Of a stretch of 64,000 nt of DNA, positions 32,417 to 40,176 are shown piece by piece; position 1 is the first letter of the stretch; each line of letters begins with the position of its first letter. A program made the translations under genes and the position numbers. The notes beneath the pieces were generated by a model. It was not told where the DNA came from, did not search any database, and saw nothing but the letters and a program-made list of their open reading frames with translations. This stretch comes from Halomicroarcula saliterrae (GTDB taxonomy: Archaea; Halobacteriota; Halobacteria; Halobacteriales; Haloarculaceae), in the NCBI RefSeq assembly GCF_031624395.1, contig NZ_JAMQON010000001.1:372001-436000 (forward strand), read 5' to 3'.

Positions 32417-32484
32417 GTCTCTGTCGTGGTGGTGACCGGTAAAAAACGGTGCTATCGCTTCGACGGCGGCGGTCCGACAGGGCC

Positions 32485-33369
32485 TCAGTCCTTCCCGGTG
32501 AAGTGGCCCTGCTCGTCGCGTTCCTGCTCCTGTGCGGAGTGTTTCCCACCGCGGGAGCGCGCTTCCTGGGTCAGGCCCTGGGTGTTGCCCTGCTGGTTCT
32601 CCTCGTTGCCCTGCTGTTCCTCGTGCTGGCGCTGCTGGTGCCGTTGCTGACCCTGTTGCTGGGGCTGTTGACTCTGCTGGCCGCCCTGCGAGACGAACTG
32701 GCCCTGCTGACCGCGCTGCTGTTGTTGTTGTGGCTGCTGGCTCTGCTGGCCGTACTGCTGTTGCTGGGGCTGCTGGCCCTGCTGGCCGTACTGCTGTTGC
32801 TGGGGCTGCTGGCCCTGCTGACCGCCCTGCTGTTGCTGGGGCTGCTGGCCCTGCTGACCGCCCTGCGAGACGAACTGGCCCTGCGGACCGCGCTGCTGTT
32901 GCTGGGCCTGCTGTCGGTGTTCCTGCCGGAACTGCTGGGAGTGGCGCTGGTCGGCCGCGCCCTGGTCGGCGCCGCGGCCCTGCTTGCCCGGCCACCCGGC
33001 CTGCTGACCACTCGGCTGCTGCTGGGCGGAGAGGTACCCCTCTCGCTGCTGCTGGGGCTGCTGGCCTTGCTGGCCGTACTGCTGTTGCTGTGGCTGCTGG
33101 CCCTGCTGGCCGTACTGCTGCTGCTGTGGCTGCTGGCCTTGCTGGCCGTACTGTTGCTGTGGCTGCTGGCTATACTGCTGCTGTCGCTGTTGGCTCTGCT
33201 GCTGCCCGTACTGCCGTTGGTGTGGTTGCTGACTCTGCTGTTGTCTCCGCTGGGGAGACTGCTGTTGCTGTGGTTGCTGGCCCTGCTGTTGCCCGTACTG
33301 CTGGCTCTGCTGGCCGTGCTGTTGTTGCTGACGGTGCTGCTCGCCCTGGTTCTGATTGTGATGTGGCAT
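32485..33369 (-). CDS. Glutamine-rich, tandem-repeat low-complexity protein
   Basis: 294 residues from ATG 33369 (MPHHNQNQGEQHRQQQQ). By my count about 140 residues are Gln. A 12-residue unit of the type YGQQGQQPQQQQ recurs five or more times, and a larger unit with GQFVSQGGQQ recurs twice. The last 30 residues differ: EARSRGGKHSAQEQ and EQGHFTGKD, reminiscent of KGG-type stress-protein motifs. It is nearly uncharged in the middle, unlike the acidic haloarchaeal proteome. The reading frame is supported by wobble mixing of CAG and CAA. There is no signal peptide. Prion-like or phase-separating behaviour is inference only. It sits directly downstream of the TOMM cluster on the same strand. Confidence 0.7.
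   Translation of the reverse strand: MPHHNQNQGEQHRQQQQHGQQSQQYGQQQGQQPQQQQSPQRRQQQSQQPHQRQYGQQQSQQRQQQYSQQPQQQYGQQGQQPQQQQYGQQGQQPQQQQYGQQGQQPQQQREGYLSAQQQPSGQQAGWPGKQGRGADQGAADQRHSQQFRQEHRQQAQQQQRGPQGQFVSQGGQQGQQPQQQQGGQQGQQPQQQQYGQQGQQPQQQQYGQQSQQPQQQQQRGQQGQFVSQGGQQSQQPQQQGQQRHQQRQHEEQQGNEENQQGNTQGLTQEARSRGGKHSAQEQERDEQGHFTGKD
32640..33330. repeat. CAG/CAA-rich tandem repeat tract
   Basis: Degenerate tandem repeats (CTGCTG and TTGCTG on the plus strand) with unit lengths around 36 bp and longer that encode the Gln-rich protein. Such a tract is prone to slippage and to length variation between strains. Confidence 0.75.
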
Positions 33370-33485
33370 GATACGAGTTCGAGGTAGTGTCTTGTGACTC
33401 AGCGATGCCTGGGGCTGCCGAACGTCCCCGTCTATTGACACACCGCCCAACCCCGGCTAGGTTGTGCCTGCATATGCAGCAGCGC

Positions 33486-34250
33486 TCAGGGATGGGCGAG
33501 CGCCACGCTCACGAGCGTCCACTCGTTCGGCCGGTCCGCGAGGCCGAGCAGCGCGTCGACGGCGTCGTAGCGGAACCCGGCGTAGGGGCGCGAGCCGATG
33601 CCGAGATGGTCCGCGGCGAGCTGCATCGCGTGGAGCACCGCGCCGGCCTCGACGAGCGTGAACAGATACCCCCGTTCGCCGTACTTCGCCGTCGACCGCG
33701 ACGGGAGGCCCGTGACGAGGAGCATGACGCTGACGGCGTGGTCGGTGTCGAGATGTGTCCACTGCTCGCCGACGAAGCGGTTGAGGGGGCCGAACCGGTC
33801 GTCGACGTAGTCGGGGTCGGCCGGGCGCTCCAGTGTGTTCGCCGCGGGATTGTAGTGATAGAGCCCGGAATCGAGGTCGACGGCGTCGACGACGAGCGGA
33901 TAGATTTCGAGGGGGTAGCGCTGCCCGGCCGAGGCGACGGGTCTGGTCCCCGACGCCGGGTCCACCCGGTACGCACTGGTGAGGACGGTGAACAACTCGT
34001 CTCTGGTCACCGGCCGCGGCTCGGTCGGGTCGTCGAACGAGGACCGCGAGCGCAGCTGTCGCAGGAAGGGAGTGTCGTCGGGGTCGAACGACGCGGACGG
34101 CGTCTCCGACTCCAGCCGCGTGTACTCCCTGTACCCGCCGGTCGGCCACGACCGGTCGTCCACAGCCACCGCGTCGGCGTCGACGAGGTCGTGCTGGTTC
34201 CGGTGGTACAGCCGATACAGCGGATACAGGCCGTCAGGCAGTTGGCTCAT
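33486..34250 (-). CDS. SagB/ThcOx-type FMN dehydrogenase of the TOMM cluster
   Basis: 254 residues from ATG 34250, nitroreductase fold. The first half shows a SRSSFDDP segment (the FMN-phosphate Arg-x-Ser region) and ASAGQRYPLEIYPLV, a SagB-type substrate strand. The second half has GAVLHAMQLAADHLGIGSRP, the helix that covers FMN. In azol(in)e clusters this family oxidises azolines to aromatic azoles. It overlaps the YcaO gene by 4 bp (ATGA-type) and is the last gene of the operon. Start choice rests on that overlap; a much longer reading frame upstream is antiparallel noise inside ycaO. Confidence 0.88.
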   Translation of the reverse strand: MSQLPDGLYPLYRLYHRNQHDLVDADAVAVDDRSWPTGGYREYTRLESETPSASFDPDDTPFLRQLRSRSSFDDPTEPRPVTRDELFTVLTSAYRVDPASGTRPVASAGQRYPLEIYPLVVDAVDLDSGLYHYNPAANTLERPADPDYVDDRFGPLNRFVGEQWTHLDTDHAVSVMLLVTGLPSRSTAKYGERGYLFTLVEAGAVLHAMQLAADHLGIGSRPYAGFRYDAVDALLGLADRPNEWTLVSVALAHP

Positions 34251-35560
34251 GGGAACGGGTGTGGGCAGTCGTTCAGGTCTGTGGGCGCCGGCGACGCCGA
34301 ACTGTACCCGCGGTCGACCGGCACCGTCGAGAGGCGGTCTCCGCCCCAGTATCGGTGGGCCCCACTGAGATACAGCGGCTGGGCGGCCGGCGCGAGCACG
34401 CGGACCACGGTGAACCCGGCCGCCGCCACGTCGCGCGTCGTCACGTCGACGGTGTAGACGTCCCACGTGTCAGTGACAGTCGGTACTACGTCGCTCGCAT
34501 CGAGGGGACCTGTCTCGGCGTCGATTTCGGCGGGCGTCGTGGTGGACTCGGTGTCGGTCCAGGCGGGGAGTTCGGCCGCCGCCCCGCGCTCGCTCCACGC
34601 CAGCAGCCGCTCCTCGCGGCCGACTTCTGCGGGCGACAGCGCCGACAGCGACGGCCGCTCCTCGGTCCGGGCACGCAGGTGCTGCTGGTAGCGACGAGTC
34701 TGTATCGCCTCTTCGAGCGCCGACTGGGCCGCTCCGCTGGCGTCGACGGCCGCCGCCGCGGCGACGGAGACCTCGGGCAGCCCGTGGCGGTCGACCAGCA
34801 CCGCGACGACGACCGGAATCCCGAGGTCGGTGCGCGCGTCGAGCAACCGCCAGTCGATGCCGGCTCGGTCGAGCCGGTCACACAGCGTCCCCACCGGACC
34901 GTCACGGTCCGGCACGCGAACGCTCGGTAGCGGGCTCTCGGTGAGATAGTACAGCATGAACGCGTCGCGTTCGACGACCTCCAGCAGCCCGCGCCGGACG
35001 GCGCCGGCCCGTTCCAGTCCGGCGGCCAGCCCCGTGCTGATAGGAGCGCGGACGAACGGCCTGTCGCGCGTGTCGTACGAGAGATACACCAGCTGTGCCG
35101 GGACCTGTACCGTAGTGCCGTCGGTCGCCCGCTCGCCCGCGACCCAGCGGAGTTCGTCGCCGCGCTCGTAGCACGCCGGCGGAACGGTCCCCGCCGCTCG
35201 CTGTTCGGGCGCAAACGTCACCACATCGGCGGGGTCGACCGCGTTGTCGAGGGCGCCGTAGGCGTCCTCACGAAGGTCCCGGTCCCGGTAGATGGCGGCG
35301 CTGTACCGTTCGACGCCCTCGCCGATAGCCGCTGTGAGGGCCGCCCGAGGGGTCAGTGCGGCACCGCCCTCGCTCGGCGGCACGAAGACGCCGTCGGTCA
35401 TCGCAGCGGGATGGGCGCGGTCGACAGCGGCGGTGTGGAGCCGGGGCTCGTCGGCTGGTGTGGCCCCGGTTCGGACGCGTCTGAACACGCCGACGGATGG
35501 GTCTGTGAGGGTTCGCCCCGCCCGCACCACCCGGTCAGTCGCGTCCGTCACACGCGTCAC
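34247..35560 (-). CDS. YcaO cyclodehydratase (TOMM D protein)
   Basis: 437 residues from GTG 35560. The three ATP/Mg-binding clusters of YcaO are present: EGVERYSA (about 81-88), EVVERDAF (about 193-200) and ALEEAIQTR (about 280-288). The C-terminus ends in NDCPHPFP, a PxPxP-like tail needed by azoline-forming YcaO enzymes and usually missing from other YcaO classes. It phosphorylates backbone amide oxygen to cyclise Cys, Ser or Thr onto the preceding residue. It overlaps the C protein gene by 26 bp and the dehydrogenase by 4 bp, so all three are translated from one mRNA. Confidence 0.93.
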   Translation of the reverse strand: MTRVTDATDRVVRAGRTLTDPSVGVFRRVRTGATPADEPRLHTAAVDRAHPAAMTDGVFVPPSEGGAALTPRAALTAAIGEGVERYSAAIYRDRDLREDAYGALDNAVDPADVVTFAPEQRAAGTVPPACYERGDELRWVAGERATDGTTVQVPAQLVYLSYDTRDRPFVRAPISTGLAAGLERAGAVRRGLLEVVERDAFMLYYLTESPLPSVRVPDRDGPVGTLCDRLDRAGIDWRLLDARTDLGIPVVVAVLVDRHGLPEVSVAAAAAVDASGAAQSALEEAIQTRRYQQHLRARTEERPSLSALSPAEVGREERLLAWSERGAAAELPAWTDTESTTTPAEIDAETGPLDASDVVPTVTDTWDVYTVDVTTRDVAAAGFTVVRVLAPAAQPLYLSGAHRYWGGDRLSTVPVDRGYSSASPAPTDLNDCPHPFP

Positions 35561-36425
35561 ATCCCGGGACTCCGAACAGTCTGGCCTCGCCGTAGTCGAG
35601 CGTCCGAAGGTCGAACCGGAACAGCCGGCCGACGAGGTCGGCCGGCAGCCGGGCCAGTCCCGCCCGGAGCGTCAGCCGCGTCAGGACGTGCGAGCACAAC
35701 TCCGTCTCGTAGGTCGGGCCCGGAGCGAGGGAGCGATACGTCAGCTCCCGGCCGGCGTCGTTCAGTTCCTCGCGAGTCGTGAGACACGCCAGACACGACT
35801 CGCTCGACGGCGAGAGCACCGGCCCGATTTCGACCTCTGTGCCCCGCACCGCCGCTCGAACGAGCGTCGCGTCCGAGTCGAGCCACGCGCGGTTGACCGC
35901 TTCTCGGTCGGTGGTCGCGTCGCCCTCGACGAACACCAGCACGTCCGGGTCGCTGTCGGTAGTCGTACAGCCGAACGCCCCGAACGCGTCGCCGAGTTGG
36001 CCCGTGGTCGACGGCTCCCCGTGCAGCCCCACGGTGAGCGACCGTACTCGGTCCGCAAAGCCCGGGCGGCTGTCGGCGTCGAGTCCGAGCAGCAGCGTTT
36101 CGAGCAGGCTCAGGCGGTTGTCGTCCACGTCGAAGCCGTCGAGCAGTTCGACCGGGTACACGAGTCCCGCGGCAGAGAGGCGCTCGGCGATGGCGAGCGC
36201 AGTCGCTTCGTCACCGATGGCCGGCACCACGTCGCCCAGCGGGGTCTGTCCGTCGCTGGCCGCGAGGAGGTCGCCGCTCAGCTGTGCCGCCTCGCCGGAG
36301 AGTGTCCTGGTGCCGGTGGGACCGGTGACGACGATCGCGTCGCCGTACTCGGCCATGGCAGTGCCGTTTGGCACTTTGAACCGCGTCTCGACAGTCAGTT
36401 CGGTGGGGCTCTGTGGTGTGTCCAT
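35535..36425 (-). CDS. TOMM precursor leader-binding protein (ocin-ThiF-like C protein)
   Basis: 296 residues from ATG 36425. Residues about 10-90 form a winged-helix RiPP recognition element (RFKVPNGTAMAEYGDAI, SGEAAQLSGDLLAA and a helix ending AERLSAAGLVY). The rest is a shortened E1/ThiF-like domain with a zinc site of two pairs, Cys211-x2-Cys214 (SCLAC) and Cys289-x2-Cys292 (GCDAC). No adenylation motif is apparent, as in other TOMM C proteins. It binds the leader and presents the core to YcaO. It starts 3 bp after the precursor's stop codon. Confidence 0.88.
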   Translation of the reverse strand: MDTPQSPTELTVETRFKVPNGTAMAEYGDAIVVTGPTGTRTLSGEAAQLSGDLLAASDGQTPLGDVVPAIGDEATALAIAERLSAAGLVYPVELLDGFDVDDNRLSLLETLLLGLDADSRPGFADRVRSLTVGLHGEPSTTGQLGDAFGAFGCTTTDSDPDVLVFVEGDATTDREAVNRAWLDSDATLVRAAVRGTEVEIGPVLSPSSESCLACLTTREELNDAGRELTYRSLAPGPTYETELCSHVLTRLTLRAGLARLPADLVGRLFRFDLRTLDYGEARLFGVPGCDACDGRD

Positions 36426-36428
36426 GAC

Positions 36429-36638
36429 TCACTCGTCGTGTCCCGGCGCGGCCGCGCTGCAGCCGCCGCTGCCCCCACCGCCACAGGAGCCGCCGCCACC
36501 GCCGCCGTAGGAACCGCCGCCGGCGGGACTGCGGGGCTCGTCAGCTTCGTCGGCCGTCTCCTCGTCGTCTTCGTCCCGGAGTTCCGGCGGCAATCCGTCG
36601 GTTATGTCCAGGTCGATGTCCGTGTCGTGTGGAGACAT
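36429..36638 (-). CDS. Microcin-B17-like TOMM precursor peptide
   Basis: 69 residues from ATG 36638 (MSPHDTDIDLDITDG). The leader (1 to about 38) is highly acidic. The core (about 39-69) is Gly/Ser/Cys-rich: Ser43-Tyr44, Gly45-50, Ser51-Cys52, Gly53-56, Ser57, Gly58-59, Cys60-Ser61, then AAAPGHDE. The Gly-Ser-Cys and Gly-Cys-Ser triads are the bis-heterocycle sites of microcin B17. Candidate cyclised residues are Ser43, Ser51, Cys52, Ser57, Cys60 and Ser61. No protease site is obvious; the leader-core boundary near PRSPAG is a guess. A longer frame starting at 36896 is rejected because of the promoter at 36661. Confidence 0.85.
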   Translation of the reverse strand: MSPHDTDIDLDITDGLPPELRDEDDEETADEADEPRSPAGGGSYGGGGGGSCGGGGSGGCSAAAPGHDE

Positions 36639-36660
36639 AGCACCAAAATCGCCAGCGGTT

Positions 36661-36670
36661 GGTAAAAATC
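36661..36670 (-). promoter_or_regulatory. TATA box of the TOMM operon
   Basis: On the minus strand GATTTTTACC is centred about 27 bases before the precursor ATG at 36638, giving a leaderless mRNA. It lies in the roughly 160-bp spacer shared with the divergent threonine dehydratase gene. Confidence 0.6.
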
Positions 36671-36796
36671 TGGCCCGGACGTGCGCGCCAGCTGCCGTCT
36701 CGCTTCGTTTCCCGGCCGTTCGCGAACTCTCTCGCGTCCCACAGTCGACCGACGGGAGACCGCGACTTTTAGTGTGCTTGCGACCGGGGGGGCTGT

Positions 36797-37831
36797 ATGG
36801 ACGGTCGCTACGAGCCCGTCGAGTCGCCGGACGAAACGACCGTCTTCCCGTATCACGACCTGACGCCGCCGACGACGGCCGACGTGGCCAGGGCACGGAA
36901 GGTCGTCTCCCGCCATCTCCCCGAGACGCCGCTGGTCCGCAGTGAGACGCTTTCGGCGGCGCTCGACGCGGACGTGTATCTGAAACGCGAGGACACGCTG
37001 CCGACCGGCGCGTTCAAAGTCCGGGGCGGCGTCAATCTCGTCGCCTCGCTCGACCCCGAGTTCCGCGAGCGCGGTCTCATCGCCGCCAGCTCGGGCAACC
37101 ACGGCCTCTCTGTCGCGTGGGCGGGCCGGGAGTTCGACGTGCCGGTCACCATCGGGGTCCCCGAGAAGGCCAACGCGGGGAAGGTCGCGGCGATGGAGCG
37201 ACTCGGCGCCGACGTCGTCAGCTACGGGCCGGACTACGACACCGCCCGGGAACACATCGAATCGCTCGCCGTCGAGAACGGGAAACGGTACGTCCACTCG
37301 GGCAACGAGCCCAAGCTGCTCTCGGGCGTCGGCACCGCCGGGCTCGAAATCGTCGAGGAGCTCCCGGAGGTCGACCGGCTGTACTGTCCCATCGGCGGTG
37401 GCACCTCCGCCGTCGGCTACTGTCTCACCGTCGGCGCGCTGACCGACGCGGACGTCGTCGGCGTCCAGTCGGCCGCGGCGCCCGCGATGTACCGTGCGTA
37501 CCACGAGGACACGCTGGAGCCCCACGACCGGATGGAGACCAGCGCCGAGGGCGTGGCCACCAGAGTTCCGTTCGCGCTCACGATGGGCGTCCTCCGGGAC
37601 GGACTGGCGGATCTCCAGCTGGTCTCCGAAGACGCCATCCACGAGAGCGTCGCCCGGCTGTTCGTCGAGGAGCGTATCGTCATGGAGGGGGCCTGCGGGA
37701 CCTCGGTCGCGGCCGCGCTGCGGGCCGGCGACGATATCGCCGGCGAGACGGTCGTTATCCCCGTCTCCGGCCGCAACATCGACCGTGCGAAGCTCGACGC
37801 CGCCCTCGCCGACTACGACGGCGTGGCGTGA
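36797..37831 (+). CDS. Threonine/serine dehydratase-like PLP enzyme
   Basis: 344 residues, fold-type II PLP enzyme. The PLP lysine is in TGAFKVRGGVNLV (about Lys75), the substrate loop in SSGNHGLSVAW near 100, and the Gly-rich phosphate loop in CPIGGGTSAVGY near 200. It resembles biosynthetic and catabolic threonine dehydratases (to 2-oxobutyrate) without the C-terminal ACT-like regulatory domain of E. coli IlvA. A serine racemase or dehydratase role cannot be excluded. Divergent from the TOMM operon. Confidence 0.85.
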   Translation: MDGRYEPVESPDETTVFPYHDLTPPTTADVARARKVVSRHLPETPLVRSETLSAALDADVYLKREDTLPTGAFKVRGGVNLVASLDPEFRERGLIAASSGNHGLSVAWAGREFDVPVTIGVPEKANAGKVAAMERLGADVVSYGPDYDTAREHIESLAVENGKRYVHSGNEPKLLSGVGTAGLEIVEELPEVDRLYCPIGGGTSAVGYCLTVGALTDADVVGVQSAAAPAMYRAYHEDTLEPHDRMETSAEGVATRVPFALTMGVLRDGLADLQLVSEDAIHESVARLFVEERIVMEGACGTSVAAALRAGDDIAGETVVIPVSGRNIDRAKLDAALADYDGVA

Positions 37832-39060: not shown

Positions 39061-40176
39061 ATGTACAATGTTCGGGACCACTACGATAGAGAGACGCTAC
39101 TCGAAGAGGCGGAGTCCTTCGTCAGGGAGTGTTACGCGGAACTAGACAAGGAGGGAGAGATAGACGACCGGGTCGCCGAGATCAGAGCCGAAGTCCGAGA
39201 GCGAGGCCACTACGACCACACCTACGAGGAGCTCGAACACGGCGCAAAGATGGCGTGGCGCAACAGCAACCGGTGTGTGGGCCGCCTGTTCTGGGACAGG
39301 CTCGAAGTCGTCGACGAGCGCGGTCTGGAGACGCCCGAGGAGATACACGAGGCCTGCTGTCGGCACATCCGGCAGGGACGCAACGACGGCGATATCGTGC
39401 CGACGATAACGCTGTTCAAACCGCAGATCAGGGGGGAGACACAGGTCCGTATCTGGAACTACGAACTGCTCCGGTACGCGGGGTACGAAACCGAAAACGG
39501 GGTCGTCGGCGACCCCGCGGAGACCGAGTTCACGAACTACTGTCTCTCGCGGGGGTGGGAGCCGGACCGGACCGAGTTCGATATCCTCCCACACGTCATC
39601 CAGGTCGGCGAGGACGAACCCGCGATGTTCGACGTCCCCGACTCCGTCGTCGAGGAGGTCGAACTGACACACCCCGACTACGAGTGGTTCGGCGACCTCG
39701 GCCTGAAGTGGTACGACGTGCCGATAGTGTCGAACATGTGCCTGGAGATCGGAGGGATACGGTACACGGCAGCGCCGTTCAACGGCTGGTATCTCTCGAC
39801 GGAGATCGGTGCACGCAATCTCACCGACAGGGACCGCTACGACATGCTCCCCGAGGTCGCACGGCGACTGGGGCTTGACACGAGCGAGGACCGTTCGCTG
39901 TGGAAAGACGAAGCGACCCTGGAGATACACCGCGCGGTCATCCACTCGTTCGACGAGGCAGGCGTGCGGATTACCGACCCGCACACAGTCACAGACCAGT
40001 TCGAACAGTTCGAGCGCAACGAGAACGCCAACGGGCGCGACATCACCGGCGACTGGTCGTGGTTGATACCACCGACCAACCCAGCGACGACCCAGACGTT
40101 CCACACCACCTTCGACGAAGACGTGAACACCCCGAACTTCTTCTATCAGGAGGACCCGGACCCGATGTCCGGGTGA
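39061..40176 (+). CDS. nos: Nitric oxide synthase oxygenase domain
   Basis: 371 residues, NOS oxygenase only. The heme thiolate Cys72 is in AWRNSNRCVGR. The substrate and pterin region is recognisable in FNGWYLSTEIGARNL and the C-terminal segment GDWSWLIPPTNP. The oxygenase is the whole protein: there is no fused reductase, as in bacterial NOS of Bacillus and Deinococcus, so electrons must come from another flavoprotein or ferredoxin. It converts arginine to NO and citrulline through N-hydroxyarginine. It is a single gene with its own A/T-rich promoter. Alternative ATG 39053 is out of frame. Confidence 0.94.
   Translation: MYNVRDHYDRETLLEEAESFVRECYAELDKEGEIDDRVAEIRAEVRERGHYDHTYEELEHGAKMAWRNSNRCVGRLFWDRLEVVDERGLETPEEIHEACCRHIRQGRNDGDIVPTITLFKPQIRGETQVRIWNYELLRYAGYETENGVVGDPAETEFTNYCLSRGWEPDRTEFDILPHVIQVGEDEPAMFDVPDSVVEEVELTHPDYEWFGDLGLKWYDVPIVSNMCLEIGGIRYTAAPFNGWYLSTEIGARNLTDRDRYDMLPEVARRLGLDTSEDRSLWKDEATLEIHRAVIHSFDEAGVRITDPHTVTDQFEQFERNENANGRDITGDWSWLIPPTNPATTQTFHTTFDEDVNTPNFFYQEDPDPMSG

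What the first reader, a model, noticed from the sequence alone, without database searches (positions are those of the whole stretch)
33486..36638. Complete four-gene TOMM/LAP cluster in a haloarchaeon
A precursor peptide, a leader-binding C protein, a YcaO with a PxPxP-like tail and a SagB-type dehydrogenase are adjacent, spaced by 3 bp or overlapping by 26 and 4 bp. That is the minimal set for making a linear azol(in)e peptide. Haloarchaeal salt-in cytoplasm and the acidic leader make the chemistry setting unusual. I cannot tell whether this exact family has been described.
Basis: partly seen in the sequence, partly recalled or inferred. Interest (0 to 1): 0.93.

Follow-up and report, generated by a model that had tools for sequence, protein, structure and literature searches.

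The report
Archaeal azole-peptide gene cluster
A salt-loving archaeon carries four adjacent genes, a small glycine-rich peptide and matches to the three parts of a known peptide-tailoring machine, which would likely turn the peptide's two cysteines, and perhaps neighbouring serines, into thiazole or oxazole rings; what the peptide does is not known.

Summary
On the minus strand lie precursor A, leader-binding C, YcaO D and SagB-type B, spaced as described. C, D and B each pass curated TOMM cut-offs (C narrowly). A 23-row model of C (pLDDT 86.8) superposes over nearly its full length on TruD/LynD. D ends in PHPFP, a literal PxPxP.

The precursor is real: in Haloarcula salinisoli the same cluster sits at the same site, and the 28-residue core is identical despite 13 silent codon changes, while the acidic linker has drifted. 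A sister type in Halohasta/Halonotius has its own precursor family (49 proteins, CCSA in 48).

Fused YcaO "haloazolisin" genes, reported from all haloarchaea, form a separate D clade. This discrete type is rare (C at 70 bits or more in 6 of 392 sampled genomes, the window's included) and sits between a CYTH and a PALP-enzyme gene. antiSMASH flagged a "thiopeptide" in H. salinisoli F24A, perhaps this cluster.

Most likely it makes a linear azol(in)e peptide; chemistry, processing and target are untested. The operon has no exporter, immunity or leader-protease gene. GSC and GCS motifs recall microcin B17, but D is not close to McbD. A new member of a known kind, worth a Haloferax expression test.

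The parts
36429..36638 (-). Precursor gene A, 69 aa: leader residues 1-39 (36522-36638), core residues 40-69 GGGSYGGGGGGSCGGGGSGGCSAAAPGHDE (36432-36521), stop 36429-36431. The leader/core border is inferred from where conservation starts
   Evidence: Orthologue in G301 (69% identity, E 8.6e-20); core 28/28 residues identical with 13 silent codon changes
36594..36623 (-). Conserved leader motif, residues 6-15 (TDIDLDITDG), conservation continuing to L20; likely recognition sequence for C (inferred)
   Evidence: T6-L20: 13 of 15 identical to the G301 leader while the following acidic linker diverged
36663..36668 (-). TATA-like TTTTTA, 25-30 nt before the ATG of A (possible archaeal promoter of a near-leaderless transcript)
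   Evidence: Read from sequence; a TTTTATAT lies at a similar distance before A in the G301 locus L048. Not tested
35535..36425 (-). C protein, 296 aa: N-terminal region (about residues 14-90) with the strand and helix order of a leader-binding domain, E1/ThiF-like body, four Cys (C211, C214, C289, C292) that likely bind zinc (inferred)
34247..35560 (-). D protein, YcaO cyclodehydratase (predicted), 437 aa, C-terminal PHPFP (34250-34264)
   Evidence: PF02624 193.9 bits, TIGR03604 243.6 bits; E81, E84, E194, E197, R198, E284 invariant in 12 of 12 D proteins
33486..34250 (-). B protein, SagB-type dehydrogenase (FMN dependence recalled for the family), 254 aa; K189-Y190 (33681-33686) aligns with the KY of McbC
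   Evidence: TIGR03605 87.6 bits; PDB hits CyaGox, McbC, BmdC; K189 kept in 7 of 9 rows (Arg in L051, L052), Y190 in 9 of 9
32417..36796 (.). Accessory stretch between CYTH and the PALP-enzyme gene that holds the cluster and a Gln-rich ORF
   Evidence: 14 of the 30 other congeners (all but the window's genome and G301) were fetched; in 11 of 14 the two flanking genes are 80-268 bp apart, in 3 of 14 they are 1.4-2.5 kb apart; no cluster protein found at E 1e-5 in 14 of 14

Best explanation
The operon is predicted to make a linear azol(in)e-containing peptide (LAP/TOMM): the leader of A would dock on C, D would likely cyclise the two core cysteines and perhaps neighbouring serines with ATP, and B would likely oxidise the rings to azoles. 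Shown here: the four genes, their profile matches, a fold model of C like that of known leader-binding domains, the conserved YcaO glutamates and PxPxP tail of D, the KY pair of B, and strong conservation of leader motif and core in a relative. Inferred: docking, ring formation, which residues react (C52 and C60 most likely; S51 and S61 could give oxazole-thiazole and thiazole-oxazole pairs), and oxidation. Unknown: leader removal, export, immunity and target. The fixed core and the absence of export or immunity genes from the operon argue for one conserved role rather than a fast-changing weapon, but do not prove it.
Against: C only just passes TIGR03882. No product, transcript or mass is known. 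No TldD/E domain or pentapeptide repeat protein was found in the genome; no exporter is in the operon. D residue 186 aligns where TruD and MJ1094 have Glu (alignments) and McbD has Asp; none of 8 window-group D proteins (G, A, M, M, M, M, K, S) is acidic there; the effect on ATP use is unknown. K189 of B is Arg in 2 of 9 rows. The window precursor has only one orthologue besides itself in 392 genomes, and none in the protein search.
Confidence: 0.8

Rival explanations
1. The product is a convergent analogue of microcin B17: a glycine-rich peptide with oxazole-thiazole (GSC) and thiazole-oxazole (GCS) pairs that poisons the DNA gyrase of rival haloarchaea.
For: The core carries GSC then GCS on a poly-Gly chain, in the order of McbA's GSC and GCS. 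In microcin B17 Gly39-Ser40-Cys41 gives oztz39, and a tzoz54 is named (PMC3622597 passages). Whole-peptide alignment with E. coli McbA beat 2000 of 2000 shuffles; core only, 11 of 2000 shuffles reached it. That haloarchaea have a bacterial-type gyrase is recalled.
Against: Gly-rich bias makes the score soft; D lies far from McbD (long branch); no mcbE/F/G-like genes in the operon; no pentapeptide repeat protein found in the genome; two Cys against four in McbA.
Confidence: 0.08
2. D installs another backbone change (thioamide or amidine) rather than azolines.
For: The YcaO superfamily has thioamide-forming members (PMC5589413 and PMC8120280: abstract starts; PMC8120280 passages); amidine formation is recalled.
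Against: TIGR03266 score 86.2 against cut-off 365; SagD-type model passed; no TfuA found in the genome; C and B partners are those of azole synthetases.
Confidence: 0.05
3. The cluster makes a thiopeptide, as antiSMASH labelled a cluster in H. salinisoli F24A.
For: Table 3 and section 15 of PMC8600319 list one thiopeptide cluster in F24A and none in strain F28 of the same species.
Against: By eye, ORFs listed beside the window cluster and in L048 showed me no split dehydratase or cycloaddition enzyme, but no profile search was made for them; the core has 4 Ser, no Thr. Whether that label refers to this cluster was not checked.
Confidence: 0.03
4. The operon is silent or decaying and makes nothing.
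For: Rare and patchy.
Against: All four frames are open; dN is well below dS in all four genes against L048; core invariant.
Confidence: 0.04

Closest known systems
Cluster in Haloarcula salinisoli (locus L048, G301)
   Same: A-C-D-B order, same genomic site, identical 28-residue core; C 61%, D 65%, B 71% identity
   Different: Longer acidic linker; extra DsrE-like and HTH_10 genes between the cluster and the PALP-enzyme gene
Halohasta/Halonotius C-D-B-A clusters (L049-L052)
   Same: Discrete C, D, B; D in the same clade (98/95)
   Different: Precursor last, different leader, core around CCSA
Haloazolisins (Cox et al. 2015, PMC4603692, passages)
   Same: Haloarchaeal YcaO near the SagD type (own fused copy 215.9 against cut-off 219.25), tails HPFP or HPYP
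   Different: Fused, truncated CD, open frames of 579-672 aa in the rows of the tree, separate 100/100 clade; no clear partner genes or precursor found beside it in Haloferax (PMC9953058 section 17)
Microcin B17 synthetase McbBCD and McbA (L109)
   Different: C and McbB show no similarity above shuffles (64 of 300 reach the score); D 14% identical to McbD; McbE, F, G absent from the operon
TruD and LynD heterocyclases
   Same: Fold of the C domain and YcaO motifs
   Different: C and D fused there, separate here

Membership tests
LAP/TOMM biosynthetic cluster | YcaO cyclodehydratase of the azoline type | tested here: met
   TIGR03604 243.6 over 219.25; PHPFP tail; conserved Glu/Arg positions
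LAP/TOMM biosynthetic cluster | Leader-binding partner protein | tested here: met
   TIGR03882 39.2 over 36.9; model matches TruD/LynD. Binding itself not tested
LAP/TOMM biosynthetic cluster | Precursor with Cys/Ser/Thr core beside the enzymes | tested here: met
   A, 3 bp upstream of C, conserved in L048
LAP/TOMM biosynthetic cluster | Azol(in)e rings in the product | not testable with these tools
   Needs expression and MS
Haloazolisin (Cox 2015) | Fused, truncated CD protein | tested here: not met
   C and D separate; D outside the fused clade
Microcin B17 | McbEFG export and immunity genes | tested here: not met
   Not in the four-gene operon; no pentapeptide repeat protein found in the genome. 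ABC exporters elsewhere in the genome were not sought
Microcin B17 | D close to McbD | tested here: not met
   Tree, long separating branch; 14% identity
Thioamidated RiPP | TfuA partner | tested here: not met
   PF07812 not found in own genome; it rings in 1 of 14 controls
Thiopeptide | Split dehydratase and cycloaddition enzyme | tested here: inconclusive
   None seen by eye among neighbouring ORFs; no profile search made for them

The most novel reading that the evidence does not exclude
Archaea reinvented microcin B17: Haloarcula makes a poly-glycine peptide with the same oxazole-thiazole and thiazole-oxazole pairs and uses it against the DNA gyrase of other haloarchaea.
Probability: 0.08. 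Interest if true: 0.85.

Novelty: new member of a known kind. Interest (0 to 1): 0.52.

Why it matters
In the passages I read, haloarchaeal YcaO genes come with predicted precursors at best (PMC4603692) and no confirmed product, and deleting the fused ycaO of Haloferax mediterranei did not remove its antagonism (PMC9953058 passages). This operon has a clear precursor next to a discrete synthetase, so whether archaea make azole peptides can be tested directly; Haloferax volcanii has already been used to express archaeal RiPP clusters (PMC12144867 passages). The two precursor families with nearly fixed cores also hint at conserved roles.

Tried and rejected
Precursor against the protein database: 1 candidate, no hit at E 0.01. 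Precursor against 392 genomes: 24 of 392 matched at E 0.01; apart from the window's genome and G301 the other 22 had E 1.9e-4 or worse and look like low-complexity chance. Precursor against PDB: 20 matches up to E 10, best 0.046, along Gly/acidic stretches; ignored. PHROGs: none for C, D or B at E 0.001. Rfam: none in 33300-37000; one tRNA in the window. C against PDB by sequence: none at E 1. First model of C with 8 rows had pLDDT 68.8; its searches also led to LynD/TruD and it was replaced by the 23-row model. C hits: 12 of 392 genomes at E 0.001, 6 of them above 70 bits (window's own included); of the other six, G140, G114 and G341 belong to B-C-D clusters and G370 to a plasmid C-D-B cluster, G307 looks unrelated (L061) and G214 gave no TOMM match in its stretch (L057). 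In the tree three rows are the same genes as others (L012=L051, L014=L049, L028=L050). Novelty searches in the held papers; other passages read for this: PMC12893001, PMC10093198. The supplementary precursor table of PMC4603692 was not seen, so a listed relative cannot be excluded. Recalled, from no call: the catalytic pair of McbC, ATP-site numbering of E. coli YcaO, FMN use of SagB enzymes, gyrase of haloarchaea.
Full report
What is there. On the minus strand, 33486-36638, four genes follow each other: A (69 aa), C (296 aa), D (437 aa) and B (254 aa), with a 3 bp gap and overlaps of 26 and 4 bp. D is a YcaO (PF02624, 193.9 bits) that passes the SagD-type TOMM model. B is a nitroreductase-family SagB-type dehydrogenase. 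C passes the TOMM leader-binding model by a small margin and has no Pfam match.

D. E81, E84, E194, E197, R198 and E284 are invariant in 12 of 12 D proteins including McbD. Residue 186, Glu in TruD and MJ1094 and Asp in McbD, is not acidic in 8 of 8 window-group proteins. The C-terminus is PHPFP. In a tree of 51 rows (three of them second copies of the same genes) the window D pairs with Haloarcula salinisoli and then with four Halohasta/Halonotius-type proteins (98/95). The 28 fused haloarchaeal CD proteins form their own 100/100 clade, the seven B-C-D-type proteins another (97/93), and McbD is distant. Long branches make the deeper joins unsure, and no characterised non-azoline YcaO was included.

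A. In G301 the cluster lies at the same site; the contig length ties G301 to Haloarcula salinisoli. Between the two A genes the 28-residue core GGGSYGGGGGGSCGGGGSGGCSAAAPGH is identical although 13 of 28 codons changed silently; the leader stretch T6-L20 keeps 13 of 15 residues; the acidic linker between them has drifted and differs in length. dN and dS are 0.26 and 0.90 for A, 0.29 and 0.89 for C, 0.26 and 0.98 for D, 0.21 and 0.81 for B, and 0.09 and 0.52 for the flanking PALP-enzyme gene. Gly codons can only change silently at their third base, so the silent count alone says little; that no first or second base changed in the core, while the enzymes have dN of 0.21-0.29, is the telling part. 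This is a maintained precursor, not a chance ORF.

Sister types. Its 4-row profile finds 49 proteins, 48 of 49 with CCSA and 37 of 49 with the pattern CC[ST]A..N...T. In 392 genomes it gives 9 matches at E 0.01, of which 4 are strong (E 1.7e-27 or better), and these are the same four genomes; the other 5 have E 0.001 or worse. The window genome has a second discrete cluster, B-C-D, on contig 3, with a likely precursor just upstream (core SAGYCCCCTEECEDLWYC, L004 6410-6550), and a fused CD gene. C of the B-C-D type gives 55 of 392 genomes at E 0.001, 20 of them at 140 bits or more.

Distribution. The window's C gives 12 of 392 genomes at E 0.001, 6 of them at 70 bits or more. D of the discrete type, outside the B-C-D and fused types, is in 3 of 32 genomes of the genus (G000, G301, G233); in G233 it lies on another contig than the PALP-enzyme gene. 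Of the 30 other congeners I fetched 14: none of 14 had a cluster protein (E 1e-5) beside CYTH and the PALP-enzyme gene, in 11 of 14 the two genes are 80-268 bp apart, and in 3 of 14 (L092, L096, L100) 1.4-2.5 kb of other sequence lies between them. So the cluster is an accessory insertion at a fixed junction, shared by the window strain and H. salinisoli. Ribosomal protein uL4 matches that of PDB entries 3cc2 and 1jj2 (Haloarcula marismortui, recalled) best, so the genus is probably Haloarcula; a C protein of 76% identity is named Haloarcula onubensis.

How it would work. By analogy with characterised LAPs (general knowledge), the DIDL motif of the leader would dock on C, D would phosphorylate amide oxygens and cyclise C52 and C60, possibly with S51 and S61, and B would oxidise azolines. 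Leader removal is open: the TldD/E domain PF01523 was not found in the genome (it rings in 10 of 14 controls, not in Haloferax volcanii). No exporter or immunity gene is in the operon. The fixed core in both families argues for one conserved role; this is inference.

Against microcin B17. The GSC and GCS motifs stand in the order seen in McbA. Whole-peptide alignment beats all of 2000 shuffles, but the fairer core-only alignment is reached by 11 of 2000. The enzymes are not close and immunity genes are absent, so a shared origin of the precursor is unlikely and a shared target is only a guess.

What is known. Cox et al. (PMC4603692, passages) described nearly 100 haloarchaeal clusters with fused CD, named them haloazolisins and predicted 31 precursors. 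PMC9953058 (passages and section 17) reports that the fused ycaO is in all haloarchaeal genomes and that its deletion left antagonism in place. PMC12144867 (passages) mentions YcaO-related archaeal RiPPs, and names two lanthipeptides as the only ones validated before it. PMC8600319 (passages and section 15) lists a thiopeptide cluster in H. salinisoli F24A, perhaps this one. NCBI names the H. onubensis C a TOMM precursor leader peptide-binding protein, so automatic annotation already sees the enzyme. Searches of held papers listed no paper whose title or abstract start describes this precursor; that is a limited library and only listings and passages were seen.

Verdict. Observation confirmed, interpretation supported, product untested. 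A new member of a known kind in a domain where, in what I read, the product class awaits proof.

Noticed in passing
L004 6410-10000 (own genome, contig 3): Second discrete TOMM cluster, B-C-D, with a likely precursor just upstream whose core holds CCCC; its D scores 194.7, below the TIGR03604 cut-off
   Followed up: partly
39061-40176: Nitric oxide synthase oxygenase domain (PF02898, 525.9 bits) in a haloarchaeon; a like ORF stands near the cluster in L048
   Followed up: partly
32485-33369: Gln/Gly-rich repetitive protein of about 294 aa next to the cluster, no Pfam match; a piece recurs at this site in L092 without the cluster
   Followed up: partly
L058 10621-10836 and 6221-6454 (G233): Two small Cys/Gly-rich ORFs flanking another discrete C-D-B cluster, possible precursors
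   Followed up: no
L059 11188-11328 and L060 5614-5808: Thr-rich possible precursors (STCTTTTTCRGTTTSTTVS and like) upstream of B in two B-C-D clusters
   Followed up: no
L106 and L107 (Halorubrum and Haloplanus plasmids): Plasmid-borne C-D-B clusters with, on the opposite strand just after B, a gene annotated as aminoglycoside phosphotransferase family protein; D ends in PQPFL
   Followed up: no
L112: A distant YcaO of this type in a Candidatus Kerfeldbacteria contig
   Followed up: no
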